A stretch of DNA of 42,798 nt, from contig JAFXVY010000119.1 of the NCBI GenBank assembly GCA_017534595.1, positions 1 to 42,798 on the forward strand, given 5' to 3'. The position numbers and the translations under genes are program-made. The stretch comes from Ruminococcus sp. (GTDB taxonomy: Bacteria > Bacillota > Clostridia > Oscillospirales > Ruminococcaceae). Every line of letters begins with the position of its first letter. Position 1 is the first letter of the stretch. The notes under the pieces are model-generated. The model had not been told where the DNA came from and made no database searches. It was given only the letters and a program-made list of their open reading frames with translations. Positions 4,890-33,072 of this stretch are shown here, piece after piece.

Positions 4890-7070
4890 CTAATTTTCTA
4901 TCTGCTTGCCCAGGAACATCGCGGCAGCGCGGGCGAGCATGAGATTTTTCTCATCCGCTTTGGGTTCGCCGGAGGGCTCGATGAGTGCCACGGCTCCGAT
5001 GGCGTCGCCGGCGGAAATTATCGGTACTGCGGCAAGTGCGGGCTTGTCGAGCCCCTCGATGGGAAAGAGCCGGGGAGTATCGTCACGGTCAAAGGCGTAG
5101 CTGCGGCGCTGCTCGATAAGATCCTCGAGGGCGGGGGAGAGCCGGCGTTCGGCGTACTCGCTGCGGCGTGCTCCCGACACTGCGACCACATGGTCACGGT
5201 CAAAGACGAGGGCGGCGTGGCCGGTGAGCTTCGCGATGACCTCTGCGGCCTGCGCTGTGCCGCCGTCGAGCTCACCGACGGGCGAGAATTTCCTGAACAC
5301 CACCTCGCCGTCGCTCGATGTGTATATTTCAAGGGGGTCGCCCTTGCTGACAATATTGACACTGAAAGTTTCGCTCTTGGAAAGAGCGGAAGACGGCGTG
5401 TTTTCGGGGCTTTCAGTGCCTTGCGTAAAATTTGCCGCATCCTCCAGAGGCACACAGGCGGGGACGGCGTCGCGCTTTTCGGCAAGGCGGAGCAGCGAGT
5501 CGATATCAGCACGCAGGTGGATCTCTATGCGGTCGGTGAAAATGACGATCTTATCGACGGTAAGGTCGATGTCTGATTTGGTGAGGCTGTCCCGCTCGAT
5601 GATGCTGTTGAACACCTCGAAGACGGTCTTAGCGGTGCGGTTGGCTCGTATGAAGGCATTGTGCCTGTCGGCGGCAAGCTTCTGCTGGTTTTTGAGTCCC
5701 TCGATCCGAAGCGTCAGCTCGTCGAGCTGTTCATCGTAGATCTCGTCGAGCATTTCGGCACGCTCGGGGTGTCTGGTGAGATCGAGCGCTCGCTGACGGG
5801 TGAGCATCTTGATCTCAGATCTGGCGGCCTCGATAAGCTGCTCGAAGCTCTCTACACCCGAACGGCTCTGAGCGGTCTCGGCCTGCTCTCTGTCGATAGC
5901 CTCCTGAAGCTCGGCGAGTATTTCCTGAGAGTTATCTCTGACTTTAATAAGGTAATTTTTGATAAGGCTGTCGAGCAGATCGCAGCGGGTATGGTGGGAG
6001 GAGCAAGCCTTGGCACCCATGCGGTGATATGTGCCGCAGCGGTATGCGGGGGCGAGGTCGGCGCGGGACATTGAGAACATGGGTGCGCCGCAGTCTCCGC
6101 AAAAGAGGTGCCCGGAGTAGGCGTTCTCATACTTCCTGATACCGCGGTAGCCTGTTTTGCTGCGCTGCTTTATATTCTCCTGAGCCCTTGCGAAAACCGT
6201 GGGCTCTACGATCGGCTCGTGATTGTTTTCAAATACGAGATGCTCGGTCTGTTCGAGCTTTTCGTCGCTGCCGTTAATTTTCCTGCGGCGGTATTTGCCC
6301 TGACGAAGGGTGCCGATATAGAAATCGTTGGTGAGTATCTCGCCGACAGTAACGATGCTCCACTCTTCCTTTGCGTTGATGCGGCATTCCTCTCCGGCGG
6401 CTTCCTTACGGGCTTTTTCTGTCATTCGCGGCGTGGGGATATGCAGCTCCGAGAGGTGCCGGGCGATCTTTTTGTAGCCCCAGCCGTCGTTGTAGAGGCG
6501 GAATATCTCCCGGACTATGGCGGCTTCCGGTTCGCTGACAGTGAACGCCATAGTCTTGGAGTTAGTCATCACATACCCGTATGGGACAGCGCAGATCCAG
6601 CGGCCTTCCTCCTGACGGCGTCTGATGACCGACTTGACCTTTTTGGAGGCATCCGTTACCGGCATCTCGTTGATCAGGAAGCGGAACTGTATCGCTGTCC
6701 AATCATCGTGGGTAGGGTAGTCGATAGCGTCACCGATGGAGATGATGCGCAGCCCTGCGTCGCGGAGGTCTTCGAGCTCAACGAGCCCCTTGCTGTTGCG
6801 GCGGGAGAACCTGGAAAAGTCTTTGACGATGAGGATATCGTAGCTGCCGTTCATCAGCTTCGGGCGCAGCGCCATATATCCCTCGCGCTGCTCAAAGGTA
6901 TAGCCCGAGCGGTCGCGGTCTTCATACAGGTCGAGCTTGGCACCGGGGAAATGTCTGCAGGTGTAGTCCTGAATGATCGATTTCTGGTTCTCGATGGAGG
7001 TGTTATCGCGGTCGAGTTCCTCGTCCACAGAGATACGGCAGTAGCCGGCGATGTTGAGCTTCTTGGGCAT
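4890..7070 (-). CDS. Large serine recombinase with C-terminal SpoVT segment
   Basis: A 726-residue protein; the ATG at 7070 follows AAGGAGGACACT. Residues 1-150 are a serine resolvase domain with catalytic Ser14 in GYCRIS and the arginine-rich KDFSRFSRR (83-91). Residues 155-295 are the recombinase domain, and Cys324, Cys327, Cys345 and Cys356 form a zinc ribbon followed by a coiled coil (380-470). From residue 577 the protein becomes SpoVT-like to its end: GDPLEIYTSSDGEVVFRKFS, then DRDHVVAVSG, IEQRRSYAF, PIISAGDAIGAV and AAAMFLGKQIEN. In SpoVT of Bacillus the corresponding GDPLEIF lies about residue 32, inside the AbrB fold, so the first strand-helix part of the DNA-binding domain is missing. 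Either the element integrated into spoVT and captured its 3' part in frame, or this is a true fusion with a GAF sensor. It is the last gene of a minus-strand cluster and has its own promoter. Confidence 0.9.
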   Translation of the reverse strand: MPKKLNIAGYCRISVDEELDRDNTSIENQKSIIQDYTCRHFPGAKLDLYEDRDRSGYTFEQREGYMALRPKLMNGSYDILIVKDFSRFSRRNSKGLVELEDLRDAGLRIISIGDAIDYPTHDDWTAIQFRFLINEMPVTDASKKVKSVIRRRQEEGRWICAVPYGYVMTNSKTMAFTVSEPEAAIVREIFRLYNDGWGYKKIARHLSELHIPTPRMTEKARKEAAGEECRINAKEEWSIVTVGEILTNDFYIGTLRQGKYRRRKINGSDEKLEQTEHLVFENNHEPIVEPTVFARAQENIKQRSKTGYRGIRKYENAYSGHLFCGDCGAPMFSMSRADLAPAYRCGTYHRMGAKACSSHHTRCDLLDSLIKNYLIKVRDNSQEILAELQEAIDREQAETAQSRSGVESFEQLIEAARSEIKMLTRQRALDLTRHPERAEMLDEIYDEQLDELTLRIEGLKNQQKLAADRHNAFIRANRTAKTVFEVFNSIIERDSLTKSDIDLTVDKIVIFTDRIEIHLRADIDSLLRLAEKRDAVPACVPLEDAANFTQGTESPENTPSSALSKSETFSVNIVSKGDPLEIYTSSDGEVVFRKFSPVGELDGGTAQAAEVIAKLTGHAALVFDRDHVVAVSGARRSEYAERRLSPALEDLIEQRRSYAFDRDDTPRLFPIEGLDKPALAAVPIISAGDAIGAVALIEPSGEPKADEKNLMLARAAAMFLGKQIEN

Positions 7071-7124
7071 AGTGTCCTCCTTTCTGACAATGTTGTTATA
7101 TATATTCTGTTTACTATATATAAT

Positions 7125-7153
7125 ATTGTAGCACATCCGAGTACTTTTGTCAA
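7125..7153 (-). promoter_or_regulatory. Recombinase promoter
   Basis: On the minus strand TTGACA (7153-7148), a 17-base spacer and TACAAT (7130-7125). A hairpin with arms ATACCGGGT and ACCCGGTAT (about 7158-7192) separates it from the upstream gene, so the recombinase can be transcribed independently. Confidence 0.7.
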
Positions 7154-12400: not shown

Positions 12401-12767
12401 CACTCCGTCAAGAGACCTTGCCGCGATAGTGCTCACAGGCTGCGATCTCAAGCTCCCCGAGGGCGGCAGCGTAAGCGGCGCAGTTATCTATGACGGCGAC
12501 GAACAGCTCGCAAAGGAGGTCAGGATAGCTCCGCCCCTGGAGATTCGCAAAGGCGATATCAACTCCGACGGTCACGTCGATGTCACTGATCTGACGATCC
12601 TTGCGCGTTCTCTTGCAAAGTGGACGGGCTACGCCGCACAGGTCAACGACCTCAACGCCGACGTTGACGGCGACGGAGAAGTAACCGTGACCGACTACTC
12701 CATTCTCGCCCGAGCCCTCGCCCGGTGGCCGGGGTATGCCGAGGAGCATAATATAGTGCTCGGATAA
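9489..12767 (+). CDS. Secreted dockerin protein 1 with five beta-helix-like modules
   Basis: A 1,092-residue secreted protein. The ATG at 9489 follows AGGAGG at eight bases; an upstream in-frame TTG overlaps that ribosome site. The signal peptide is about residues 1-33 (TTAFMLVLSMFSFLP, cleavage near ASAED). Five modules of about 190 residues begin near residues 38, 232, 429, 627 and 827, each opening with a YDLxVxGxQV-like strand, DILGxGEASYDPETNTLTL, and then short glycine-rich rungs such as DMTLTGKM and GLTVKAE that look like a parallel beta-helix. Modules 2 and 4 are nearly identical over long stretches of DNA. Residues 1019-1092 are a type I dockerin with two calcium loops, DINSDGHVDVTD and DVDGDGEVTVTD. 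No catalytic domain is recognisable. It probably docks to a cohesin-bearing scaffold on the cell surface as a binding or structural subunit. Confidence 0.9.
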   Translation: MQGIKKRSLALTTAFMLVLSMFSFLPHGWLDQASAEDAVYDLYICGVQVNGGNASDILGGGEASYDPEANILSLKKNIGLPEEQGGVIVDCRIKGLTVRAENDITISRPGIGAAVCVYEDTTVTGRMTLTGGAGIMVVGCDLTVDHADLDIAGNGWGIYGGLLEDPPTKLTVNASSIRASGEEGAICGFTGGIYLNGCGILTADCSVRDGSFSDAYTEQPTPLAEAEVTTADIYELEVAGRRVSSINKGDILGNGEASYDPETNALTLKKDITCNKDNTDGSTPCITNRIGGLTIKADNEVTLTREQFGAGIYTEKDITLTGKMTIEGGVGLLASDCQIIISDADLTVIGHNGSAAQGGMLGGTNTSRMTINNSEVRFNGTEDGSVVNFGNGLELNGCNLLNQGVFFDGVSYLYLGTTEPATNVEITTSEVYDLVVGNQRVYSKNASDILGNSEASYDPETNTLTLKKDFTLTDDRAIPVVRNNISGLTLNAESGITLTREGFGAAIITEEDMTLTGRMTITGGVGILVGDAQLTVKDADLDISSGGGAIIGRLGEEFGKTSRLVIDNSKISAKNDEAGAVYGFPNGIELDNCGILTGDCEIKDGCILESYVDDPLPVSEVEITNAEIYGLEIAGQKVTSDNMDDILGNGEASYDPETNTLTLKKDITCNKDNTEGATPCISNRIDGLTVKAEGEVTLTREEFGACIYSEADMTLTGKMNVSGGAGILVTDSTLTITDAEINAVGNSSSGITGGRFGNESKLVINNSTVIAVSHDEEEGSGAITGFGKGIELIDSALAPGCVINDGSVCGSDGVTPAGSAEADPVVKFDLYVYGTQVTSGNMTDILGDGVFSYDDTAKTLTVSGNHSMNLKDIAIKNSIEGLTVNIAADSKLSGCFETSKSMTLTGPGKLTLETFSTYQAVLIWGMGNTFTIKDADVSVTGGYMIGSSMNGQNTLSIENSTLYTRISCSFTTPSRDLAAIVLTGCDLKLPEGGSVSGAVIYDGDEQLAKEVRIAPPLEIRKGDINSDGHVDVTDLTILARSLAKWTGYAAQVNDLNADVDGDGEVTVTDYSILARALARWPGYAEEHNIVLG

Positions 12768-12780
12768 GTTCAGCTGCACA

Positions 12781-12812
12781 GCGCCCCCGGATTTTGTTCG
12801 GGGGCGTTTTTG
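12781..12812 (+). terminator. Terminator of dockerin protein 1
   Basis: CGCCCCCG (12782-12789) pairs with CGGGGGCG (12799-12806), followed by TTTTTG. The stem and preceding bases are shared with the interrupted terminator after dockerin protein 2. Confidence 0.9.
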
Positions 12813-17400: not shown

Positions 17401-17854
17401 CGATACCAAATACTTCGTCTGCGGCGTTAAGGGCATCGAGAGACTCACCGTGAAGAACTCGACCGTCGATGCGAACTGCTCCGTCGCCGCTATAGATAAT
17501 ATCGCCGAGCTCACCCTCAAAGACTGCAGCTTCCTGATACCTGCGGGCGGCATCTTCAAACTCGGTACTGTCTACAAGAGCGACGGCTCGACAGTCGCGG
17601 CAAGAGTGAAGATCGTCCCCGGGGATAATATCCGCAAAGGCGATATCAACTCCGACGGCCACGTCGATGTCACCGATCTGACGATCCTTGCGCGTTCACT
17701 TGCAAAGTGGACGGGTTATGCCGCACAGGTCAACGAAGCCAACGCCGACGTTGACGGCGACGGAGAAGTAACCGTGACCGACTACTCCATCCTCGCCCGA
17801 GCCCTCGCCCGGTGGCCGGGGTATGCCGAGGAGCATAATATTGTGCTCGGATAA
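14477..17854 (+). CDS. Secreted dockerin protein 2, mosaic of beta-rich modules
   Basis: A 1,125-residue secreted protein. The ATG at 14477 follows GGGGGGAG; upstream in-frame TTG is rejected. Signal peptide about 1-36 (ITAMALVLSMFGMLPAG). Residues about 40-350 are unlike the other paralogues, with beta-helix-like strands (IIIDDSVGGGRIEF, DLIINGGTFSLG, VAIINGGRF), and their DNA is clearly more AT-rich than the rest. Then come Ig-like segments, an InlB/Flg_new-type repeat (KVKFDPGKGTGTMSDVTV to FSKWTDG, about 575-645), two tandem 110-residue repeats sharing LTEPKxGExINETM and GRWYHxxTVMxAGxKF, one YDLCVGDVQV module, and a dockerin at 1052-1125. The tandem Ig-like and InlB modules suggest adhesion or spacing rather than catalysis. 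Its terminator is interrupted by a cargo cassette. Confidence 0.9.
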   Translation: MARIRRRVTSFITAMALVLSMFGMLPAGVLRATAGDMIILQGRGTKDDPYIAYSYEELKWELRFADSVSDPPYSEGYHERYIKLGCDIFTDDPWALIECNHYTGSYCKLYFDLAGHTIKKEVEESIFQTFVSVYDDSSIIIDDSVGGGRIEFISAYHQNNGDYNSVICTRGGDLIINGGTFSLGPYNPNNTYSYAIHILGAQGNSDYDGSELKPVAIINGGRFIGHYTSICHSGQQFCTLIVNGGKFETELDSTLFVADQLPLAEDRLPKYMPFKMVYNWDYMICNNIMINECDMDDGIAVLTQQFENYKEPKYKKYTECINPSSTITYDKLTQETDLFVLGKNVKIRKTKPYATGVSIEPTAPVGGRHPADAKLSWSRGIKLGSTVWKDVATGKTLKSSDVFVAGKKYEMSVGLSASDGYILGTIPTVSSWNCSVTPIVKPIEPIAGRYSCSYTFTCRAPITNIDLDVATPLPLHDAEEPFVMTNGAAVERYEWVNQSGSNVARFFVNNTYTLKTYITAEEGYDFGSTVTATVNGKTAKITKAAGSTSATEYIVEYTFDKLIQYKVKFDPGKGTGTMSDVTVNKGFAYTVPECGFKAPAGHYFSKWTDGTNYYAPGDPVTVTSDITLTPVWICRVSGVNVVLTEPKSGEAINETMTSVTDGIDVARGTQSSTRNLGRWYHGDTVMSAGEKFVGGETYTAMFRLKSLTGYEFTETPDVYANGKKATFLSASGVYRTYTVSYTLPLETKYVSQVNVTLTEPKKGETINETMISSTEGIVVNRAKTDTTYNLGRWYHNNTVMKAGDKFLAGETYTAQFRLVPSTGYGLANNLKVYANGKQATLNTGALLANTYAVSFTLPEEQPETYDLCVGDVQVTDLNADDILGNGAAYYDPETNTLELIATVGGRVNYAVNNSISGLTILVNEDISLYGAKAAIRCAADTVITGPGKLTLKTGSNSSILLSSKDLLIEDANICTDTKYFVCGVKGIERLTVKNSTVDANCSVAAIDNIAELTLKDCSFLIPAGGIFKLGTVYKSDGSTVAARVKIVPGDNIRKGDINSDGHVDVTDLTILARSLAKWTGYAAQVNEANADVDGDGEVTVTDYSILARALARWPGYAEEHNIVLG

Positions 17855-17956
17855 GTTCAGCTGCACAGCGCCCCCGGAGCATACTGCCGATACTCATATA
17901 GAAGTATTAAGCCATAGTATTTCTGATGTAAAGTCAGAAGTACTATGGCGTTTCCA

Positions 17957-17985
17957 TTGACAATGCGTCAAAGTAGTGATAAGAT
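17957..17985 (+). promoter_or_regulatory. Promoter of the cassette gene
   Basis: TTGACA (17957-17962), 17 bases, TAAGAT (17980-17985), inside the cassette just after its left hairpin, so the cargo carries its own promoter. Confidence 0.7.
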
Positions 17986-18049
17986 TAATTATCAATATAA
18001 ATCGGAATTTGACAAACTGTCAGATAATTTTGATTTCAGGAGGTAAATT

Positions 18050-19066
18050 ATGAAGGTAAAGGATGCGTGGTATTTTAACTATACCCAGAAGAAAAGTGAG
18101 ATCTTGCAGCCGGATATGGCTGTACCGGAGTCTCATGTGGGGATATACTGCGAATTTGAAGAGCTGGTGTTTCCGATATCCTTTCATATTTTGGGGATGT
18201 GTAAAGGAGAGGTGGTATTTGATAAGGACATCACGGCTTTCGGCAACGGGGACGATGCAGATGTTAGTTTGCGCAAAAGCGGATACGGGGCAGTATTTAA
18301 GATCCGTGAAGATAAGGATTGTGAGCCGGATATGTTACGGGTCATCTATGAAGCGGGAGGTAAATCAGAAACTTTTGAAACGGAATGTAAATACTATACA
18401 TTTTCGGGACAGGTATCGGATTTTGACGGAAAGCCTTTTCCGGCGGTGGTGATGTTATATCGCTATGGTTTTGATGCCGCGCCGTTTATTATGGGAACAT
18501 GGACGGATCTGAACGGACGATATAGTCTTCGTGTGCCGGCCGGGAGCTATAATGCCATATATTCAGATGATAATAGCTATGGGATCAGCTCTTTGGAATG
18601 CTGGGGCTGGAATATTATTGCGGACCGGGACGAGGTCATTGATCTGAAAATCGGAAACGGTGAGGTGTATTCGTTAAATGTGAGTGTAAATAACGGAGGC
18701 GTAAAAACGCTTTTCCTTACCTTTAGGCCTATGGTATATTTCAAAAAAGAAGAATATGACACTGTAGTCGATGAAGAAAAGGTCCATATAATGGATGTTG
18801 CACCGGAGATCGCAAAAGAAGATGTTACGGTTTATGTAAACGGAAGAAAAACAGATGTGATTTCCTTACAGAAAATTTACGAGGCTTCTCCCGATGGGCT
18901 GTATTTGCCGATGTATATGGTGCAAATACCCAGAGAGCTGCATCCGGATTGCCTGGATAAGCAGACTGTCGTTTTGGAATACGATACAAAGGACCGCGGA
19001 AACGGACGTGCTTGCAGCAGAGGCTTTACGCAGTTCTTTTATAAGGATGGATTTTGTACGAGATAA
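18050..19066 (+). CDS. Cassette cargo protein with carboxypeptidase-regulatory-like domain
   Basis: A 338-residue protein beginning MKVKDAWYFNYTQKKSEI, start at 18050 after TTCAGGAGGTAAATT. No signal peptide or membrane segment, so it is probably cytoplasmic or exported by a non-classical route. Residues about 122-170 (FSGQVSDFDGKPFPAVVM to GRYSLRVPAGSYNAIY) fit a carboxypeptidase regulatory-like or Cna-B-type beta-sandwich; the flanking regions also look beta-rich. I recognise no enzyme motif and no transposase, integrase or toxin signature. Codon use (many TAT, GGA, CGG, TTA) differs from neighbouring genes, consistent with arrival from elsewhere. It is the only gene of the cassette and is therefore its cargo; its function is unknown. 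Confidence 0.8.
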   Translation: MKVKDAWYFNYTQKKSEILQPDMAVPESHVGIYCEFEELVFPISFHILGMCKGEVVFDKDITAFGNGDDADVSLRKSGYGAVFKIREDKDCEPDMLRVIYEAGGKSETFETECKYYTFSGQVSDFDGKPFPAVVMLYRYGFDAAPFIMGTWTDLNGRYSLRVPAGSYNAIYSDDNSYGISSLECWGWNIIADRDEVIDLKIGNGEVYSLNVSVNNGGVKTLFLTFRPMVYFKKEEYDTVVDEEKVHIMDVAPEIAKEDVTVYVNGRKTDVISLQKIYEASPDGLYLPMYMVQIPRELHPDCLDKQTVVLEYDTKDRGNGRACSRGFTQFFYKDGFCTR

Positions 19067-19107
19067 AATAATTCTGATTTATCTGAGCAGATAAAATAAA
19101 TACAATG

Positions 19108-19136
19108 CCCCGAAGCGCTTTTGAAACGCTTCGGGG
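19108..19136. terminator. Hairpin near the right end of the cassette
   Basis: CCCCGAAGCG (19108-19117) pairs perfectly with CGCTTCGGGG (19127-19136). The T-run is poor, so it may be a weak terminator of the cargo gene or a subterminal structure of the mobile element, mirroring the hairpin at the left end. Confidence 0.55.
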
Positions 19137-19201
19137 TAAAACTTCTATATGGGTATCCGTCATATCCGGGGGCGTTTTTCTGTATGAAATGCTGCTCGTG
19201 C

Positions 19202-22283: not shown

Positions 22284-24434
22284 ATGGTACGGATACGCAG
22301 AAGGATGACATCGTTTGTAACAGCTATGGCGCTGGTGCTTTCGCTGTTCCCGGTGATACCGAAGGCTCTTGTCCGGGCGGCGGCACTTGATACCTACCTG
22401 CTTTATGTCGCGGGTACACAGGTAACGAGCGCGAATAAGGATGATATTTTAGGTGACGGCAAGCAAGCAGCTGTCTACGAGCCCGAGACCAAGACCCTTG
22501 TTCTCAACGGCAGCATCACATCAGAAAAGGCTCCTGCTGTTGAGAACCATATAGACGGCCTGACCTTAAAGATCAACAATGAGATCACGGTCTATTCTCT
22601 GGCTTCGGAGATCATCAGCACCAACAATGCCGATATGACAATAACCGGCGGTAAGATGACTGCAATGACCCTTGACGGCTACGACGGCATTGCCGTAAAC
22701 GGCGGCAGCCTCACCTTTGTGGATGCAGAGGCTTTCGTCAGTGCAGATCACGGTATCATCGGCAGCGGTTCAAGCAAGCTGATGATCAGGAATTCTTATT
22801 TTGCCGCTTCCTGCGGGATCGCAGCGATAACCGGTTTCTCCGGCGGTATCGAGTTCGAGGACTGCGAACTTTACCCGTCCGACAGCGGTTATGTCGCCAA
22901 GAAAGACAAAACCTTTTCGGTATACAGGCCGAAAAAGGGCAGCGAGACCGAGGACCCGGTCGCCGAAACCGTAAGGATAGAATACGACAAAGACGTCAAA
23001 TACGACCTCTGGGTATTAGGCAAGCAGGTGACAAGCAGGAACCGCAAGGATATCCTCGGTAAAGGCAAGCATGAGGCTTCCTATTATCCTTCCACCAACA
23101 CTCTTGAGCTCAACGGCAGCATTGTGACAGATCCCGAGAACAATATCACGGGTGATGCTATTGTGAACAGTATCGAGGGGCTGACGATCAAGGCCAACAA
23201 GCGGCTTGACATTTATGCCCCCTATGAAGGCAACGCCCTGGTCTGCAATAAGACCACTACCCTCACCAGCAACGGGCTGCTGGCTGTCTTAGCCGACGAG
23301 TACAACACAGCCATACTTCTCAACAACTGCACCCTTTGGATAAAGGACGCGGAAATGTGGATCTGGGGGAAATACGGAATACAGGGCAAAAACGGCAGCG
23401 ACTCCCTTGTCATACGAAATTCGGACGTTGAAGTCATTTCAGAATACGGTTATGCTGTCGGCGCCTTCGGCAACGGCATCGACCTCGGAAGCGAGAATTA
23501 TGTTATCACTCCGAAAAAGTATCAGAAAAATGATCTCGGCCAGGACGGTCATCACTCGTTCTTTATCTGCAACGAGGACGGGAGCATAGCGAAACAAGTC
23601 GTGATCAAGCGCCCCTACGACCTCTGGGTCTGCGGGGTACAGGTAACGGCAGAAAATGAGGAAAATGTTATCGGCGATACTTCTGTGTGGTTCAACAGGG
23701 ATATGAAGACCCTCTGGATAGAGTCCCCGACCTTCTCAAAGAAGGGGAGCAGCTTCATCCGTAACGTCAACTGCGACGGCCTCACGGTCATCTTCAATGA
23801 GGATGCGAAATACACCGTGACCGGCGGCGGGAATGCGGCTATCGAGACAGATGTGAACATGAAGATCACCGGCGGCTGCCTCACCATTAAGGGTGACAGC
23901 CCCACGTCGGAAGGCATAAGAGTCGGCAATGGTGCCAAGCTGACAGTATCACAGGCTGAGATAGCTATGTCCGGCGTTGAATACGGTCTGCACGGTAATG
24001 AAAACTCTTCGCTCATCATAGACCGCTCGGATCTGGACATTTCGGCTCCCCACGGCGCTGTCTGCGATTTTTCGGGCGGCTTGACCCTGACCGGCTGCTA
24101 TATAAAGGAACCCGTTGATTATAGAATATCTGAGTCATACGGCACCATTTGTTCCTTCGACGGCAGCTTGCCTTTGACTGCGGATAATGTCGTTATCCGC
24201 GTCCAGACCCTCCGCAAAGGCGACGTCAACTCCGACGGTCACGTCGATGTCACCGATCTGACGATCCTTGCGCGTTCACTTGCAAAGTGGACGGGTTACG
24301 CCGCACAGGTCAACGAAGCCAACGCCGACGTTGACGGCGACGGAGAAGTAACCGTTACCGACTACTCCATCCTCGCCCGAGCCCTCGCCCGGTGGCCGGG
24401 GTATGCCGAGGAGCATAATATTGAGCTCGGATAA
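22284..24434 (+). CDS. Secreted dockerin protein 3 with three beta-helix-like modules
   Basis: A 716-residue secreted protein; the ATG at 22284 follows AAGGGGAGATTATA. The signal peptide (VRIRRRMTSFVTAMALVLSL) is almost the same as in dockerin protein 2. Three modules of about 200 residues open with YLLYVAGTQVTSANKDDILG (about residue 34), YDLWVLGKQVTSRNRKDILG (about 240) and YDLWVCGVQVTAENEENVIG (about 447). Each continues with short strand repeats ending in glycine turns, typical of a parallel beta-helix. The dockerin occupies residues 643-716 with loops DVNSDGHVDVTD and DVDGDGEVTVTD. No catalytic motif is seen. It is the shortest of the four paralogues and has its own promoter and a terminator shared with the convergent TPR gene. 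Confidence 0.9.
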   Translation: MVRIRRRMTSFVTAMALVLSLFPVIPKALVRAAALDTYLLYVAGTQVTSANKDDILGDGKQAAVYEPETKTLVLNGSITSEKAPAVENHIDGLTLKINNEITVYSLASEIISTNNADMTITGGKMTAMTLDGYDGIAVNGGSLTFVDAEAFVSADHGIIGSGSSKLMIRNSYFAASCGIAAITGFSGGIEFEDCELYPSDSGYVAKKDKTFSVYRPKKGSETEDPVAETVRIEYDKDVKYDLWVLGKQVTSRNRKDILGKGKHEASYYPSTNTLELNGSIVTDPENNITGDAIVNSIEGLTIKANKRLDIYAPYEGNALVCNKTTTLTSNGLLAVLADEYNTAILLNNCTLWIKDAEMWIWGKYGIQGKNGSDSLVIRNSDVEVISEYGYAVGAFGNGIDLGSENYVITPKKYQKNDLGQDGHHSFFICNEDGSIAKQVVIKRPYDLWVCGVQVTAENEENVIGDTSVWFNRDMKTLWIESPTFSKKGSSFIRNVNCDGLTVIFNEDAKYTVTGGGNAAIETDVNMKITGGCLTIKGDSPTSEGIRVGNGAKLTVSQAEIAMSGVEYGLHGNENSSLIIDRSDLDISAPHGAVCDFSGGLTLTGCYIKEPVDYRISESYGTICSFDGSLPLTADNVVIRVQTLRKGDVNSDGHVDVTDLTILARSLAKWTGYAAQVNEANADVDGDGEVTVTDYSILARALARWPGYAEEHNIELG

Positions 24435-27172: not shown

Positions 27173-30097
27173 ATGCAAAGGATAGGAAATCGGACGCTGT
27201 CGCTGCTGACGGCTTTCATGCTGGCGCTGATGATGTTCACGCTGCTGCCGCAGGGGGTGCTGAGGGCGGAGGCATTCAGCTATCTTGATGACAACATGAT
27301 CTCATGGTATTTCTCGGTAGACGGTGCTATTGCAGGAGGCGGTGCAAACGAAGAAGGTGCGACTATACTCAGCGGGACTTTAAAAGGCGGCGGAGATTTT
27401 ACTATGGTCACCGTACCTTCATCGGTAGTTGACGACGAATATCATATGACACATCCGGTTATTGGATTAAAGGCAAGCTTTGACCAGGCGGTATTTCCTT
27501 CGTCAATAGAGTATGTCTTTCTTCCTGATACGCTACTATCAATAGGTTACAGAGCATTCAGTAAATGCGATAAACTCCAAAGCATTACTCTGCCGGACGG
27601 TCTTACCGAGATCGGAGACCACGCTTTCTTTGATTGTAGGTCGCTTAAAACCATAACAATACCCGCAGGTGTAAAAGAGATCAATCCCTCGGCTTTTGAA
27701 AGCTGTGATCAATTGGCTGAGGTCAAATTTGCGGAGGGCACGAAGCTCAATGCTATCTATCAGAAAGCCTTTGCATATTGCAGTTATCTTTCCTCTATCG
27801 AGATACCGAGCACCGTAACGGAGATCGGACCGTATGCTTTTAACTCGTGCCGTAGTCTGACAAGCATCAATATCCCGTCAAGCGTTACAAAAATAGGTGC
27901 CCTTGCTTTTGAGGGATGCACACGCTTAAAAACTGTTTACATCCCTGCAAGCGTTACCGAGATAGGTGCGGACGCATTTGGTTTCATCGGCTACGGTGCC
28001 ACGATCTACGGTTACAGCGGTTCTTATGCCGAGACTTATGCGAACGAAAACAGTCTCAATTTCAGAGCGATCGACACCCAGGTGAACGCACTCGGTTTCA
28101 GCGAGATAACAATGGAAAACGGCACGATGGCATACACTGCCCGCAACGGCAGAGAGCGCACGGGCATAACCGAGCTGACCGCGAGCTCAACGCCCAAGAT
28201 CAATGACATAAAGATAGGCACCACCGTTACGATGACCCCGGGTGAAGTCCCCGAAGAGTACGAGTTCAAGGGCTATGAGGTGACCTACGACTTCACTGCC
28301 ACTGTCAACGGTACTGCCTATCACGTTTATTACAAGACTCTTTCCCGGACTGCAGATGAGAACACGTTCCTCGTTGATGTCCCCGCGGAAGCCAAGGACA
28401 GGCTTATCCCGTTCATCATCATGAAGCTGAACAGCTCGAAACCGCAGAATATCACTATCACCGGAAAGATCACCGGCAAGGCCGTGATGGAGAAGGTCAG
28501 CAGAGACCTGGGTACCCTTACCCTTGACCTTTCAAAATCCACCTCCGTTACAAACGATGACCCGACGCTGTATGACAACATCTATAATATCCTCCGCGAT
28601 AACAACACGAGCAAGATCTACCTCGGCTTGTTTGAAAACGGAGCTGAACCTTATAAGTATACATACCTTGTCGATCTTGACAAGAAGGATACTTACGATG
28701 TAAACATCTATGTTAAGGACGGAAAACTCACAGCTAAAATGCGCGATGGTGAAAGTGCTTCCGGCGCATACACCTTATCCATGAAGGACAGCTCAATAGC
28801 CGAATATACAGAGAGCGGAAAAGATTATTACAGCAAGCTCAAGATCATCCTCCCCTCTGCCGATACCTACGAGCCCGCAGATTTCGGAACTATGACCCTG
28901 GACTTCACTCTTGCCCCCTCGTATGTTATCAAGCTCTACGACAACGAGAAAGCCAACCGCATCAAGGCAACCCTTTATGCTCTCGGGAAGTCGGGCAGGA
29001 TAGGTACTTACGGCATCGCTGCATTTGATATGGACAAGGACGGCACAAACGACTTTGAGATCAATGACACCTATGCTGTAATGTACAATAATCAGACGGT
29101 AGGCGAATTTACGGACTATTTTGAGCTCACCGCTCAGGAGATATCCTATGTCAAGGAGTATTATAAGAATACTCTCGGCATCACCGCTCCCGCCGATCTC
29201 AAAGACGCCTGCGCAGGCTATCACGGAAAGATAGGCATGGTGTTCCCGGCATACGGCCTTGTAGTTGCAGGTGTTGAAGTCAATGCGAAGAACAGCAAGG
29301 ATATCCTCGGCGACGGCGTGTTCAAGTACAATGCCGCCACAAAGACGCTGACGGTAAACGGAAACTGTAACAGCGGTGACAAAACACTGATACAGAACGT
29401 AAGCGCTGCCGGACTTGTGATAGATGTTACAGGCACATCTAAGCTGACTTCTGATCTGTCATTCCTTTCGGCAAAGGCAAATACCACGATCACAGGTCAG
29501 GGCAAGCTGACAGTTGACTGCAAATACGCAGGTATCGCTATCGATAAGGACGTTACCGTTACGATAAAGAACACCAAGGATGTTTCCGTAACGGCAACAG
29601 GCGTAGGCGGTAACCTCGTAATATCAGACAATATGCGTGCAGGGAACAGAAAAAATAAAATTATCTTCGATAACGCAAATGTTTATCTGGAATCAAAGAC
29701 ATCAGCTGCCTGTGCGATCGTTCAGGATATTATTCTTAAAGACTGCACAATAACAAAACCTGAAAACGGATATATCGAAGAATCAAAGAACAATAACTAT
29801 AAGAGCATAGCTGTAAAAGACGGCACCGGTACTTCTTCGTTTGCAACAGTGGTCAGGATAGAAGCGAATAAAAGCAGAAAAGGCGACGTCAATTCCGACG
29901 GTCACGTCGATGTCACCGATCTGACGATCCTCGCCCGTTCACTTGCCAAATGGACTGGTTACGCCGCACAGGTCAACGAGCTCAACGCCGATGTTGACGG
30001 CGACGGAGAAGTAACCGTCACCGACTACTCCATCCTCGCCCGAGCCCTCGCCCGGTGGCCGGGGTATGCCGAGGAGCATAATATTGTGCTCGGATAA
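27173..30097 (+). CDS. Secreted dockerin protein 4 with BspA-type leucine-rich repeats
   Basis: A 974-residue secreted protein; the ATG at 27173 follows GGGGGAGGCATTTTT. Signal peptide about 1-34 (LLTAFMLALMMFTLLPQG). Residues about 115-290 are BspA-like (LRR_5) leucine-rich repeats with about 23-residue spacing: LPDGLTEIGDHAFFDCRSLK, IPAGVKEINPSAFESCDQL, IPSTVTEIGPYAFNSCRSL, IPSSVTKIGALAFEGCTRL and IPASVTEIGADAF. Residues about 300-690 are beta-rich and unassigned. A YGLVVAGVEV module starts near 697 and the dockerin fills 901-974. BspA repeats in other bacteria bind host or bacterial surfaces, so this is probably an adhesive subunit of the same surface complex as the other three. Confidence 0.9.
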   Translation: MQRIGNRTLSLLTAFMLALMMFTLLPQGVLRAEAFSYLDDNMISWYFSVDGAIAGGGANEEGATILSGTLKGGGDFTMVTVPSSVVDDEYHMTHPVIGLKASFDQAVFPSSIEYVFLPDTLLSIGYRAFSKCDKLQSITLPDGLTEIGDHAFFDCRSLKTITIPAGVKEINPSAFESCDQLAEVKFAEGTKLNAIYQKAFAYCSYLSSIEIPSTVTEIGPYAFNSCRSLTSINIPSSVTKIGALAFEGCTRLKTVYIPASVTEIGADAFGFIGYGATIYGYSGSYAETYANENSLNFRAIDTQVNALGFSEITMENGTMAYTARNGRERTGITELTASSTPKINDIKIGTTVTMTPGEVPEEYEFKGYEVTYDFTATVNGTAYHVYYKTLSRTADENTFLVDVPAEAKDRLIPFIIMKLNSSKPQNITITGKITGKAVMEKVSRDLGTLTLDLSKSTSVTNDDPTLYDNIYNILRDNNTSKIYLGLFENGAEPYKYTYLVDLDKKDTYDVNIYVKDGKLTAKMRDGESASGAYTLSMKDSSIAEYTESGKDYYSKLKIILPSADTYEPADFGTMTLDFTLAPSYVIKLYDNEKANRIKATLYALGKSGRIGTYGIAAFDMDKDGTNDFEINDTYAVMYNNQTVGEFTDYFELTAQEISYVKEYYKNTLGITAPADLKDACAGYHGKIGMVFPAYGLVVAGVEVNAKNSKDILGDGVFKYNAATKTLTVNGNCNSGDKTLIQNVSAAGLVIDVTGTSKLTSDLSFLSAKANTTITGQGKLTVDCKYAGIAIDKDVTVTIKNTKDVSVTATGVGGNLVISDNMRAGNRKNKIIFDNANVYLESKTSAACAIVQDIILKDCTITKPENGYIEESKNNNYKSIAVKDGTGTSSFATVVRIEANKSRKGDVNSDGHVDVTDLTILARSLAKWTGYAAQVNELNADVDGDGEVTVTDYSILARALARWPGYAEEHNIVLG

Positions 30098-30282: not shown

Positions 30283-32868
30283 ATGAAGATAAGAAAGCTG
30301 ATCGCGGGAATGTCCGCGCTGCTCATCATTGCCGGGAGTTTACCGGCTGAGGTCTTTGCCGTTTCGGAGGAGGCTGCCGCTCTGTCTTTGGAGGAGGTCG
30401 GCTATAGAGTGCTGGGTCATGCTCAGCCGGCGACCTTTGACTATACGGTCGATGAACCGTCCGTGGTACCCAAAAAGCCGGACGTTGAAAAGTTCGATCT
30501 GCGGGATGTTGACGGAAAGAATTATGTTACCAGCGTAAAGGATCAGGGAGGCTTCGGCACCTGCTGGGCGTTCGCTTCAACTGCTGCCGCCGAGACGAGT
30601 ATCCTTTATGAGGCCGGCAGGGATCTTAACGCACTTGGGGAGGGGGAGTCGGAGCTGGATCTTTCGGAGCTCCATCTTGCATGGTTCTCCGCAACTCCTT
30701 TGCCCGAGAACGGTACCTATCCTTCACAGGCGGGCGAGGGAAATATCCACTATCTTGCTCAGCTCCTCGGTGAAAGCGAAAATCCCGATTACGGAAAGAT
30801 CAATAACGATAAGTTTTCCGGCGGTAATATGCTGCTTGCAAGTTCTCTTTACAGCACCATGCAGGGGCCTGCTCTTGAATCGATCGCTCCGTTCAGCCGT
30901 TATGGAGCATCGGGAGACGTTTTTTTTATCAATGTCATAATGGATCCTGCGGAAGCTCCGGTATATTCGCTCTCTGTGTTCAGCGACCGCTCGTCCTTGA
31001 AACAGTATCATTTCGATTCGGACAGCGAAAAGGAAGAGGCGCTGAAAAAAGAAGAAGTGCTCGGCTTTATATCCCTTTACGGTGACTGTGACTGGTATGT
31101 CGGCAACGGAAGATACTGTGCCGTTATTCCTGACTATGATACTGTAATGAGTAAGGACTGGTCCGTTCCCGAAGAAGACAGATTCAAAGGTCAGGAGCTC
31201 GAGAATTCCTCCATACTTCCGCCGATCGCGAAGGAGGATCCGGTAACGGGGGAGTATCAGTTCAGCGAGACAGGTCTCAATGCAATAAAAAATGAGCTCT
31301 TAAACGGCAGAGCAGTGAGCCTTGCATTTTACGCTGACCAGTCAAGACCGAACGGACCCAAGCAGAAAGGCGTATATACCAACTTCCTCAAGCAAAACGG
31401 CGAGCCCGCCAAAAGCGGCAGAGAAACCGAATACTGGTGCCAGTACACATACGATGCATCGTATGATCCCGAGGATCCTGAAAGTGTCAATAAACTTGTC
31501 GCAGCGTGCAATCACGCAGTTACTGTCGTCGGATTTGACGATACGATCCCGAAGGAGTATTTCTACGATCCCAACGGAACTATCGGCGGAGACGGAGCTT
31601 TCATAGTAAAGAACAGCTGGGGCTCCAACGAAACAGGCACAAGCTTCGGCAACAGGGGAGAGGGCTTTTTCTACATCTCTTACTATGATCAATCGATCAC
31701 CCTGTTCGAGAGCTTTGATTTTAAGTTCTCCACAGCCAAAGAGGCTGCCTCAAAGAAGGCGACCGCTGTCGTTCCTCATATCTACGACCTGATGCCTACA
31801 AGCGGGATCTATGAGTACCGTCAGGATAATATCGCCTCTGCAAATATATTCTATAACAAGAACGATGTAAGGCTCTATGCGATAGGATTTATGAACCCTG
31901 CCTGCAACGAGAGCGTTACCTACAATGTGTATATGCTCAACGACGGGTTCACGAACCCCATCGACGGAAAGCTTGTTGCTTCTGTCACCGAGATGTACCC
32001 CTATGCGGGCTATCACCGTGTATATCTTGATAAACCCGTATATATCCCCGCAGGCTCGGATTATTCGGTAGTTGCCACAGTCACCGAGGAGAACGGACAG
32101 AACACTTTCAGTTTGAAAGTCGGAAACAGCAGGGCATACGCGGAATCTACGGCGGAATCGCTTAGACAGCAGTATATCGCGGCCGAAGGTACGGATGAAG
32201 GCTTTGAGCCCTCACATATCAATTATCAGGTCGGAGTGGTGAACAAGGGTGAGAGCTTTGTTTATGCTTTCGGACAATGGTATGACCTGGCTGATTTGAT
32301 CGATGCCTACAAAAAAATGGGATCGACATGGGGCTGGGCTTATGAATACGATAATGTCGGTATCCAGGCATTCACCGAATGTGAGCTGGCATCTGTTGTA
32401 AACGAACTCGGCAGCTCGGAGGACGAGCCTTACAGCGTGGGCGATGAGATCCCCGGCACCGTTTCACTCAGATGCAATCTGGCAGGCGGCAGTAAATTCG
32501 ATGTCTATATCAACGGCGAACTCATCGGTACAACGGAAGAGCTCGGGATCGGCGAAGTCGCAGAGCTGACATACAAGCTCCGCGTTACCGAAAAGGATGC
32601 AGACAACGGCTTTGTCGGGAGCAAGGTCACGGTATTCTATGAACAGCAAGGCGTTTACAGAGAGCTTGAGCTCTTTGACGAGTACAGCATTACCGACGCG
32701 ACCGCAGCAGCCGTAAAGGCAGCCGATACCGGTTCAGACCCCGAAAGCACCCCCGAGGAGGACACCAACCCCGCAACAGGTGCAGCTGCTTATGCAGCAA
32801 TAGGCATAGTGCTTGCAGCAATGTTGCTCATCATCGCAAAGAAGAGGGCAAAGCAAGCAAACAGATAA
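30283..32868 (+). CDS. Cell-wall-anchored papain-family (C1) cysteine protease
   Basis: An 861-residue surface protein; the ATG at 30283 follows GAGAGGTATCGGAT. The signal peptide covers about 1-27. The mature enzyme has a C1 fold: oxyanion Gln88 and catalytic Cys94 in QGGFGTCWAF, catalytic His411 in CNHAVTVVGFDD, and Asn444 in VKNSWG. The C94-H411 spacing is larger than in papain because of inserted loops. Residues about 505-650 match the lectin-like domain often found after bacterial C1 peptidases (DVRLYAIGFMNP, YTVYM-type strands, YIPAGSDYSVV). The C-terminus has NPATG (829-833), a hydrophobic segment and a KKRAK tail, the layout of a sortase substrate. It may process or mature surface proteins such as the neighbouring dockerin proteins, or degrade dietary protein; both are inference. 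Monocistronic. Confidence 0.93.
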   Translation: MKIRKLIAGMSALLIIAGSLPAEVFAVSEEAAALSLEEVGYRVLGHAQPATFDYTVDEPSVVPKKPDVEKFDLRDVDGKNYVTSVKDQGGFGTCWAFASTAAAETSILYEAGRDLNALGEGESELDLSELHLAWFSATPLPENGTYPSQAGEGNIHYLAQLLGESENPDYGKINNDKFSGGNMLLASSLYSTMQGPALESIAPFSRYGASGDVFFINVIMDPAEAPVYSLSVFSDRSSLKQYHFDSDSEKEEALKKEEVLGFISLYGDCDWYVGNGRYCAVIPDYDTVMSKDWSVPEEDRFKGQELENSSILPPIAKEDPVTGEYQFSETGLNAIKNELLNGRAVSLAFYADQSRPNGPKQKGVYTNFLKQNGEPAKSGRETEYWCQYTYDASYDPEDPESVNKLVAACNHAVTVVGFDDTIPKEYFYDPNGTIGGDGAFIVKNSWGSNETGTSFGNRGEGFFYISYYDQSITLFESFDFKFSTAKEAASKKATAVVPHIYDLMPTSGIYEYRQDNIASANIFYNKNDVRLYAIGFMNPACNESVTYNVYMLNDGFTNPIDGKLVASVTEMYPYAGYHRVYLDKPVYIPAGSDYSVVATVTEENGQNTFSLKVGNSRAYAESTAESLRQQYIAAEGTDEGFEPSHINYQVGVVNKGESFVYAFGQWYDLADLIDAYKKMGSTWGWAYEYDNVGIQAFTECELASVVNELGSSEDEPYSVGDEIPGTVSLRCNLAGGSKFDVYINGELIGTTEELGIGEVAELTYKLRVTEKDADNGFVGSKVTVFYEQQGVYRELELFDEYSITDATAAAVKAADTGSDPESTPEEDTNPATGAAAYAAIGIVLAAMLLIIAKKRAKQANR

Positions 32869-32890
32869 GATCACACCCGGCAGGAGTTAG

Positions 32891-32933
32891 GTCGGTACTA
32901 ATATAGAAGTTTTTCAACAACTATTATGTAAAG
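32891..32933 (+). repeat. Solo end similar to the cassette terminal repeat
   Basis: GGTACTAATATAGAAGT (32894-32910) differs from the cassette left end GATACTCATATAGAAGT (17889-17905) at two positions, and both are followed within about 25 bases by ATGTAAAG. It lies 22 bases after the protease stop codon, where a terminator would be expected. The other end is not clear, so this may be a decayed or very short relative of the cassette. Confidence 0.5.
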
Positions 32934-32953
32934 ACCTATACAGCGGGCTATAA

Positions 32954-32998
32954 CAACGAAAGACAGATACTTCCACGAGAGGTATCTGTCTTTTTCGT
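32954..32998. terminator. Long hairpin terminator after the protease gene
   Basis: AACGAAAGACAGATAC (32955-32970) pairs with GTATCTGTCTTTTTCGTT (32982-32999), giving at least 9 uninterrupted pairs next to the loop plus an A-T rich lower stem with the T-run. It probably ends the protease transcript. Confidence 0.75.
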
Positions 32999-33072
32999 TA
33001 TCCTTAAATATTCACAAAATATGTTTACATTCGGCAAAGTTCGTATTTTTATTGCTTTTGTATTGACTTTTT

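What the first reader, a model, noticed from the sequence alone, without database searches (positions are those of the whole stretch)
17868..19179. Cargo cassette inserted exactly into the loop of a transcription terminator
Seen directly: the terminator left arm GCGCCCCCGG (17868-17877) and right arm CCGGGGGCG plus T-run (19166-19179) are 1.3 kb apart, while the paralogous terminator at 12781-12812 is intact. Between them lie 25-bp inverted repeats (20 of 25 matching), subterminal hairpins, a promoter and a single 338-residue gene, all more AT-rich than the flanks, and no transposase. Inference: a passenger element mobilised in trans that may choose terminator hairpins as targets. Such sites would be safe landing places and would leave the cargo transcribed from its own promoter.
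Basis: partly seen in the sequence, partly recalled or inferred. Interest (0 to 1): 0.9.

Follow-up and report, generated by a model that had tools for sequence, protein, structure and literature searches.

The report
Gene cassettes that land in terminators
The window holds one copy of a widespread family of mobile one-gene packages in gut Ruminococcus-type bacteria that tend to insert into the loops of transcription-stop signals and are probably moved by a DNA-joining enzyme carried on related larger elements.

Summary
A 1,283-bp AT-rich cassette (17882-19164) splits a terminator whose arms are 17868-17881 and 19165-19179. It belongs to a family whose left-end model matches 32 of 247 genomes and 19 of 126 genera of the bacterial family. 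I paired 43 elements: in 42 the largest ORF reads left to right, and 30 have flanks that match as terminator arms above the 99th percentile of mismatched pairs. At one site (Ruminococcus albus 8) the six relatives whose match spans the insertion point all have an intact hairpin there. Similar cassettes sit at different terminators in different genera.

None of the 31 cargo proteins scanned is a recombinase. A partner exists: a large serine recombinase (DUF4368 type) ends 39-49 bp inside the same inverted end in 11 of 11 examined loci at 65% identity or more. One whole partner is a 16-kb element with Gabija genes.

Best reading: non-autonomous serine-recombinase cassettes that work like integron cassettes, with terminators as landing sites. 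Mobilisation in trans is inferred; cassette-rich G143 has no such recombinase.

The parts
17868..17881 (+). left flank: left arm of the host terminator (GCGCCCCCGG) plus a few loop bases
   Evidence: paralogous intact terminator at 12781-12812
17882..17908 (+). left inverted end (IR1-L), TACTGCC-GATACTCATATAGAAGTATT; TA at the tip is the presumed 2-bp crossover
17911..17949 (+). left subterminal hairpin, followed by GTTTCC; conserved in sequence across the family (no compensatory pairs in 12 sequences)
17957..17985 (+). promoter-like TTGACA, 17 bp, TAAGAT; 57 of 58 left ends in the family have a promoter match against 9.5% of shuffled regions
17997..18009 (+). inner repeat ATAAATCGGAATT, mirrored near the right end at 19070-19082
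18050..19066 (+). cargo gene, 338 aa, weak CarboxypepD_reg match (E 4.8e-4, below the cut-off); one homologue among the 99 other genomes searched, 53% identical in G008, where reading the locus shows no cassette ends
19108..19136 (-). right subterminal hairpin CCCCGAAGCG..CGCTTCGGGG; compensatory change in 5 of 11 pairs over 15 family members
19138..19164 (-). right inverted end (IR1-R), TATGACG-GATACCCATATAGAAGTTTT on the minus strand; TA at the tip
19165..19179 (+). right flank: right arm of the host terminator (TCCGGGGGCG) and its T-run
12781..12812 (+). paralogous, uninterrupted terminator (within-genome comparator for the empty site)

Best explanation
The cassette is a non-autonomous mobile element of a family whose two 27-bp inverted ends are half attachment sites of a TnpX-like, DUF4368-containing large serine recombinase. 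The recombinase is encoded by larger elements with the same ends. An excised circle would carry the two ends back to back as a near-palindromic site of about 52 bp around a 2-bp core, usually TA. The enzyme joins this site to a dyad-symmetric target of the form A-tract, GC-rich arm, 2-bp core, GC-rich arm, T-tract. Intrinsic terminators fit this form, so the cassette lands in the terminator loop. A cassette typically carries one gene read left to right from a promoter just inside the left end. Inward-facing hairpins at both ends probably take over the stopping of outside transcripts. Shown: the family, its anatomy, the split terminators, one empty site seen in six relatives, similar units in different genera, and the recombinase gene next to the same ends. 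Inferred: circle formation, action in trans, the role of the dinucleotide, and insulation.
For: Family and spread. Split terminators: 30 of 43 own-arm stem scores exceed the 99th percentile of 1,806 mismatched pairings. Empty site of the R. albus 8 cassette: 6 of 6 relatives whose match spans the point have an intact hairpin; two further ones (G304, G321) matched only single flanks. Similar cassettes in different genera. Recombinase: stop codon 39-49 bp from an IR1 end (0-2 mismatches in the 14-base block) in 11 of 11 loci examined at 65% identity or more (L345-L354, L365; four further matches at 65% or more came without a locus and were not examined). The window's own genome has a 60% relative, a 546-aa ORF, with the end 62 bp behind its stop. 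Of 15 loci below 55%, none has the end within 2 mismatches. Domains Resolvase, Recombinase, Zn_ribbon_recom, DUF4368 in the three scanned; nearest solved chain, for the N-terminal part, is TnpX. Whole 16-kb element in G170 between arms AGCCCGGCTG and CAGTCGGGCT (9 of 10 complementary). In G258 the two ends on different contigs have complementary arms AAAAGGGACTCTGC and GCAGAGTCCCTTTT. Core dinucleotide identical at both ends in 35 of 43 pairs, 5 of them not TA (TC, TT, three AA), against 26.5 in permutations (0 of 20,000 reached 35); the peak lies at that register. In the same register the G170 and G258 ends agree too (TT and AA, read). 135 half-sites: A-tract 13-17 bp and C-rich 7-11 bp from the core. 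Of 13 genomes with a near-full-length recombinase at 58% or more, 10 have cassette left ends, against 22 of 234 others (Fisher 7e-8).
Against: G143, rich in cassettes (17 left-model and 28 right-model matches, cross-matches included), has no large serine recombinase at all, so the mobiliser is not resident there. Of the 32 genomes with left ends, 22 lack the recombinase at the 58% cut, which I chose after seeing the list; partial matches in G149, G244, G219 and G256 were left out. More distant relatives are common: 145 of 247 genomes have one at E 1e-60. Six of the 11 recombinase-side ends do not abut an evident T-run, so the enzymes of that clade do not all choose terminators (read by eye). 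The one G211 copy examined (60%), G130 (58%) and a partial 62% match in G256 have no such end. Eight of 43 pairs have different dinucleotides (one is a double pairing in an array). A DDE transposase with a 2-bp duplication is not formally excluded. No circle, excision or movement was observed.
Confidence: 0.72

Rival explanations
1. A DDE transposase with a 2-bp target duplication and a palindromic target (IS30-like, or IS630/Tc1-like with TA) moves the cassettes.
For: 27-bp inverted ends, a duplicated dinucleotide and a palindromic target with AT-rich outer parts; recalled behaviour of IS1655 (IS30 family) fits (not looked up).
Against: The IS30 helix-turn-helix (PF13936) has no match in G143, G288 or G240; over the cut-off it is in 8 of 20 genomes, among cassette-bearing ones G229 (325-aa frame) and, in frames of 112-172 aa, G005, G244 and G166. 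AA, TT and TC cores exclude a strictly TA-using enzyme. No DDE transposase was recognised inside an element with these ends, but IS630 and other DDE families were not searched.
Confidence: 0.13
2. The target is chosen by hairpin structure (cruciform or single-stranded terminator), not by the A-tract/GC/T-tract sequence. This is a rival about target choice and can hold together with the serine recombinase.
For: Small computed loops (mostly 2-8 nt) at the insertion point and long stems in 30 of 43; A content at -13 to -18 is higher at hairpin sites (0.71) than at the other 13 (0.51).
Against: The 13 sites without a clear hairpin still have A 0.51 against a background of 0.32; the A-tract sits at a fixed distance from the core, as expected for duplex recognition.
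Confidence: 0.3
3. The split terminator is chance or an assembly artefact; the gene is an ordinary locus between two similar hairpins.
For: Only one genome is held for this species, so the window's own empty site was not seen.
Against: 43 paired elements, 30 with matched arms; one site with intact terminators in six relatives; similar cassettes at different sites in different genera.
Confidence: 0.02

Closest known systems
Tn4451/TnpX-type integrative mobilizable elements and multi-targeting large serine recombinases (DUF4368 clade)
   Same: DUF4368 and the serine-recombinase domains; nearest solved chain for the N-terminal part is TnpX; 2-bp core and low site specificity as described for Tn4451 (passages of PMC5704250). 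A multi-targeting clade rich in DUF4368, and one case with a TT core and T/A-enriched outer target (passages of PMC10083194).
   Different: The passages read describe elements or enzymes that travel with their recombinase. Here the cassettes lack one. 'Terminator' occurs 0 times in the main text of both papers.
CIMEs and mobile insertion cassettes (MICs)
   Same: Passenger genes between recombination sites, no recombinase, presumed help from elsewhere (CIME definition in a passage of PMC5704250; MIC papers seen in the listing only).
   Different: A CIME is a decayed integrative element; here one architecture (promoter, usually one gene, two hairpins) recurs with many unrelated cargos in many genera.
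Integron gene cassettes
   Same: One accessory gene per unit, horizontal spread, site-specific recombinase acting in trans (integron biology recalled).
   Different: Scattered singly instead of in arrays (one possible two-unit array, L114), own promoter, two inverted ends in place of attC, serine instead of tyrosine recombinase.

Membership tests
Large serine recombinase (TnpX/DUF4368 type) element | recombinase with Resolvase, Recombinase, zinc ribbon and DUF4368 domains encoded at the element's end | tested here: met
   Met by the partner elements (domains in three proteins). Not met by the window cassette itself, whose only gene is the 338-aa cargo.
Large serine recombinase (TnpX/DUF4368 type) element | 2-bp identical core at both junctions | tested here: met
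   35 of 43 pairs identical, window TA/TA
Large serine recombinase (TnpX/DUF4368 type) element | excision as a circle and reintegration by the recombinase | not testable with these tools
   needs laboratory work or read data
Mobile insertion cassette / CIME | passenger gene between recombination ends without a recombinase | tested here: met
   No recombinase among 31 cargo proteins scanned (30 and the window's) of 41 distinct ones listed
Mobile insertion cassette / CIME | ends shared with an autonomous element | tested here: met
   IR1 at recombinase-side ends and at T-ends; the likeness is in the 27-bp end, not in the subterminal parts
Integron gene cassette | tandem array of units | tested here: not met
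   Units read are single at scattered places, with one possible two-unit array
Integron gene cassette | attC site and an intI gene | not tested
   No search for intI or attC models was run
IS30-family element | IS30 transposase in the cassette-rich genomes | tested here: not met
   PF13936 has no match in G143, G288, G240

The most novel reading that the evidence does not exclude
Gut Ruminococcus-type bacteria have their own counterpart of integrons: a shared pool of one-gene cassettes (promoter, gene, insulating hairpins, half attachment sites) that a multi-targeting serine recombinase of travelling partner elements inserts into terminator loops all over the chromosome. Terminators serve as a genome-wide, gene-sparing set of landing sites. 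Some partner elements use the same kind of site to carry phage-defence islands.
Probability: 0.62. Interest if true: 0.92.

Novelty: new variant of a known kind. Interest (0 to 1): 0.87.

Why it matters
It would give common rumen and gut bacteria a dispersed cassette system comparable to integrons, with acetyltransferases, hydrolases, a deaminase, a cation-efflux protein and unknown genes as cargo. It points to terminators as safe harbours for insertion, and it offers a recombinase that could be tested as a tool for inserting genes without breaking others. It would explain many scattered accessory genes in these genomes as one mobile family.

Tried and rejected
Rejected: a large serine recombinase as a resident of every cassette-rich genome (G143 has none). 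IS30 as resident mobiliser. The T2 end beside the recombinase in L187 as proof of linkage: that recombinase lies outside the end. The integrase next to the truncated cassette in L098: it reads as an element inserted into the cassette. Viral collection: left-end and right-end patterns 0, T-end 0; 15 matches to a bare 17-mer and 2 to a T-type pattern are taken as probable chance, since the flanks printed show neither the L nor the R hairpin. Phage record MT837163 is, by my reading of its ORFs, a bacterial scaffold. Partner ends of T-type elements were not found in the fetched stretch in most cases. In one search the reversed control pattern also matched often (28 against 45 matches), so conclusions rest on paired or whole-end matches. 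Literature: ten searches of a library without preprints and without most subscription journals; no paper in the listings shown describes terminator-loop cassettes. Of the papers I saw the abstract and passages of PMC3942029 and passages of PMC10083194 and PMC5704250; the others only as listings.

Limits: elements were paired only where I had fetched DNA, a part of the matches in the 32 positive genomes. The 43 pairs count one array (L081) twice; without its longer pairing the longest element is 1,380 bp. The 58% cut was set after seeing the list and the genomes are related, so Fisher values overstate independence. Of 40 distinct cargo ORFs besides the window's, 30 were scanned against Pfam. 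Two of the 20 Pfam matches counted (PNPOx, peptidase MA) lie below the curated cut-off.

Full report
WHAT IS IN THE WINDOW. Positions 17882-19164 hold a 1,283-bp element between the two arms of a terminator. Its order is: 27-bp inverted end, hairpin, promoter-like site, inner repeat, 338-aa gene, inner repeat, hairpin, 27-bp inverted end. The paralogous gene upstream ends with an intact copy of the same terminator at 12781-12812; the two gene ends match at 95.6% over 249 bp, up to the left arm. The cargo has only a weak CarboxypepD_reg match. One homologue was found in the 99 other genomes searched, 53% identical in G008; reading its locus shows no cassette ends.

A FAMILY. A short pattern scan of 16 genus genomes gave 45 matches against 28 for the reversed control, so the pattern alone proves little. 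Reading the places showed pairs of inward-facing ends with two fixed types: a left end with hairpin GCCATAGTA..TACTATGGC, a T-run and a promoter, and a right end with a GCCCC..GGGGC hairpin. A model of the left end (R1) matched 32 of 247 genomes and 19 of 126 genera at E 1e-3. An exact left-end pattern in one genome per species gave 40 stretches, titled Ruminococcus, Oscillospiraceae, Clostridia or (one) Lachnospiraceae, including R. albus 8 and KH2T6 and R. flavefaciens ND2009 and Y1. Degenerate copies lie on R. albus 7 plasmids.

ANATOMY. From the loci I had fetched I paired 43 elements (one array counted twice), 531-1,723 bp, median 776. The largest ORF reads from left to right in 42 of 43; among these it starts at a median of 136 bp from the left core. 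G+C is lower inside in 43 of 43. A promoter match is present in 57 of 58 left ends with enough sequence, against 9.5% of shuffled regions. The right hairpin shows compensatory change in 5 of 11 pairs over 15 sequences, as expected for an RNA hairpin; the left hairpin is conserved in sequence without compensation over 12. Read inward, the left hairpin is followed by a T-run and the right one by a T-rich stretch, so outside transcripts would meet a stop just inside either end. That is inference.

CARGO. Of 30 cargo proteins scanned, 20 had a Pfam match: 7 GNAT acetyltransferases and one each of hexapeptide acyltransferase, uridine-kinase type, LD-carboxypeptidase, CAAX protease, alpha/beta hydrolase, PNPOx, glyoxalase, dCTP deaminase, methyltransferase, peptidase MA, DUF3795, cation efflux and PfkB (PNPOx and peptidase MA below the cut-off); 10 had none. 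None is a recombinase.

TARGET. Folding the joined flanks gives a hairpin next to a T-run in most cases (by eye). Own arms scored above the 99th percentile of 1,806 mismatched pairings in 30 of 43. The R. albus 8 cassette (L171) shows the empty state: six genomes of the same genus match across its insertion point without the cassette, at 70-77% identity, and each has an intact hairpin there; two more (G304, G321) matched single flanks only. The second tested site (L069) has neither cassette nor terminator in G301. At the third (L112), G301 matches the two flanks about 760 bp apart, so it is not empty there. Across 135 half-sites the flank has A at 60-74% from -13 to -17, C at 41-53% from -7 to -11, and A or T in 77% at -1. 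Sites without a clear hairpin (13) still have A 0.51 at -13 to -18, against 0.71 at hairpin sites and 0.32 background.

MOVEMENT. Similar units occur in different genera. The LD-carboxypeptidase gene is 99.2% alike over 948 bp between G143 and G166 (in copies that have each lost one end) and 93.1% over 1,067 bp between G143 and G050. A unit with a 174-aa cargo is 91.3% alike over 771 bp between G014 and G166, the match stopping at the ends while the terminator arms differ. The PNPOx unit is 97.5-98% alike between G143 and two contig-end pieces of G013.

THE PARTNER. An end-only model revealed other elements with the same 27-bp end but different inner parts ('T' ends), one of them in this window at 32886. 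I searched large serine recombinases in 20 genomes and scanned the returned loci for the end. In two, the recombinase gene stops about 50 bp inside such an end. With one of them as query, 11 of 11 examined loci at 65% identity or more have the end 39-49 bp behind the stop codon with 0-2 mismatches; four further matches at 65% or more came without a locus. The window's own genome has a 60% relative, a 546-aa ORF that stops slightly earlier than the others, with the end 62 bp behind. Relatives at 60% (one G211 copy), 58% (G130) and a partial one at 62% (G256) lack it; of 15 below 55%, none has it within 2 mismatches. The three proteins scanned have Resolvase, Recombinase, zinc ribbon and DUF4368 domains. 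The nearest NCBIfam models (XisF, Ccr) lie far below their cut-offs. For the one compared, the nearest solved chain is TnpX, over the N-terminal 115 residues.

In G170 (one contig) the whole element runs about 16 kb from a T end to the recombinase end between arms that pair in 9 of 10 bases. It carries GajA and GajB (Gabija) and restriction-modification genes. In G258 the ends on two contigs have complementary arms. In both, the dinucleotide in register is the same at the two ends (TT and AA; read). Six of 11 recombinase-side ends, however, do not face an evident T-run, and three of them (G119, G276, G149) share one flanking sequence, so target choice in this clade is broader than terminators.

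CORE. In register with the ends, the dinucleotide is identical at both junctions in 35 of 43 pairs, against 26.5 on average in permutations (0 of 20,000 reached 35). Thirty are TA/TA, but TC, TT and three AA pairs also match; shifting the register by one drops identity to 18. A strictly TA-using transposase is therefore unlikely. A 2-bp serine-type crossover fits, as does a DDE enzyme with a free 2-bp duplication.

ASSOCIATION AND ITS LIMITS. Of 13 genomes with a near-full-length recombinase at 58% or more, 10 have cassette left ends, against 22 of 234 others (Fisher 7e-8). The cut was chosen afterwards, partial matches in four genomes (G149, G244, G219, G256) were left out, and the genomes are related. 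More distant recombinases are common: 145 of 247 genomes at E 1e-60. G143, with 17 left-model and 28 right-model matches (cross-matches included), has no large serine recombinase and no IS30-type match. The mobiliser there must come and go, or be something else.

VERDICT. Movement in trans remains to be shown.

Noticed in passing
window 32886-33007 (+) to contig end 42798: A T-type end of the same superfamily after the ORF ending at 32868, with terminator-like left arm CACCCGGCAGG; behind it a glycosyltransferase, a polysaccharide synthesis protein and an HMGL-like enzyme on the way to the contig end. Possibly a second, large element in this window.
   Followed up: partly
window 4890-7136 (-): A 748-aa ORF with a large serine recombinase domain (PF07508); its locus shows no IR1 end at the threshold used.
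   Followed up: no
L355 (G000:C16:6211-7842): A 60% relative of the mobilising recombinase in the window's own genome: 546-aa ORF with an IR1 end 62 bp downstream. The search counted an in-frame TAA because this ORF stops slightly earlier than its relatives.
   Followed up: partly
L114 1364-3072 (G020:C3): Two left ends, two genes and one right end in a row, the second left end preceded by a near-copy of the outer arm: perhaps a two-cassette array or nested insertion.
   Followed up: partly
L180 796-16459 (G166:C2:2840000-2859000): An R end of an LD-carboxypeptidase cassette and a T end face each other 15.7 kb apart inside one pair of near-complementary terminator arms: a hybrid or large composite element.
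   Followed up: partly
L117 557-4136 (G143:C4): A right end followed by more than 3.5 kb with ORFs read towards it, one with weak pAgo-like matches, running off the contig: larger cassettes may exist.
   Followed up: partly
L149 1195-1318: A miniature element of about 125 bp with the same inverted ends and two inner hairpins.
   Followed up: no
L098 250-1972 (G143:C28): ORFs that I read as excisionase and integrase abut the cargo gene of a cassette whose right end is gone, as if an integrative element had landed in it.
   Followed up: no
window 12543-12791, 17630-17878, 24211-24434, 29868-30097: Four gene ends in the window share 92-97% identical 3' parts; Pfam finds a dockerin in the two scanned, ending at 12767 and 17854.
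   Followed up: no
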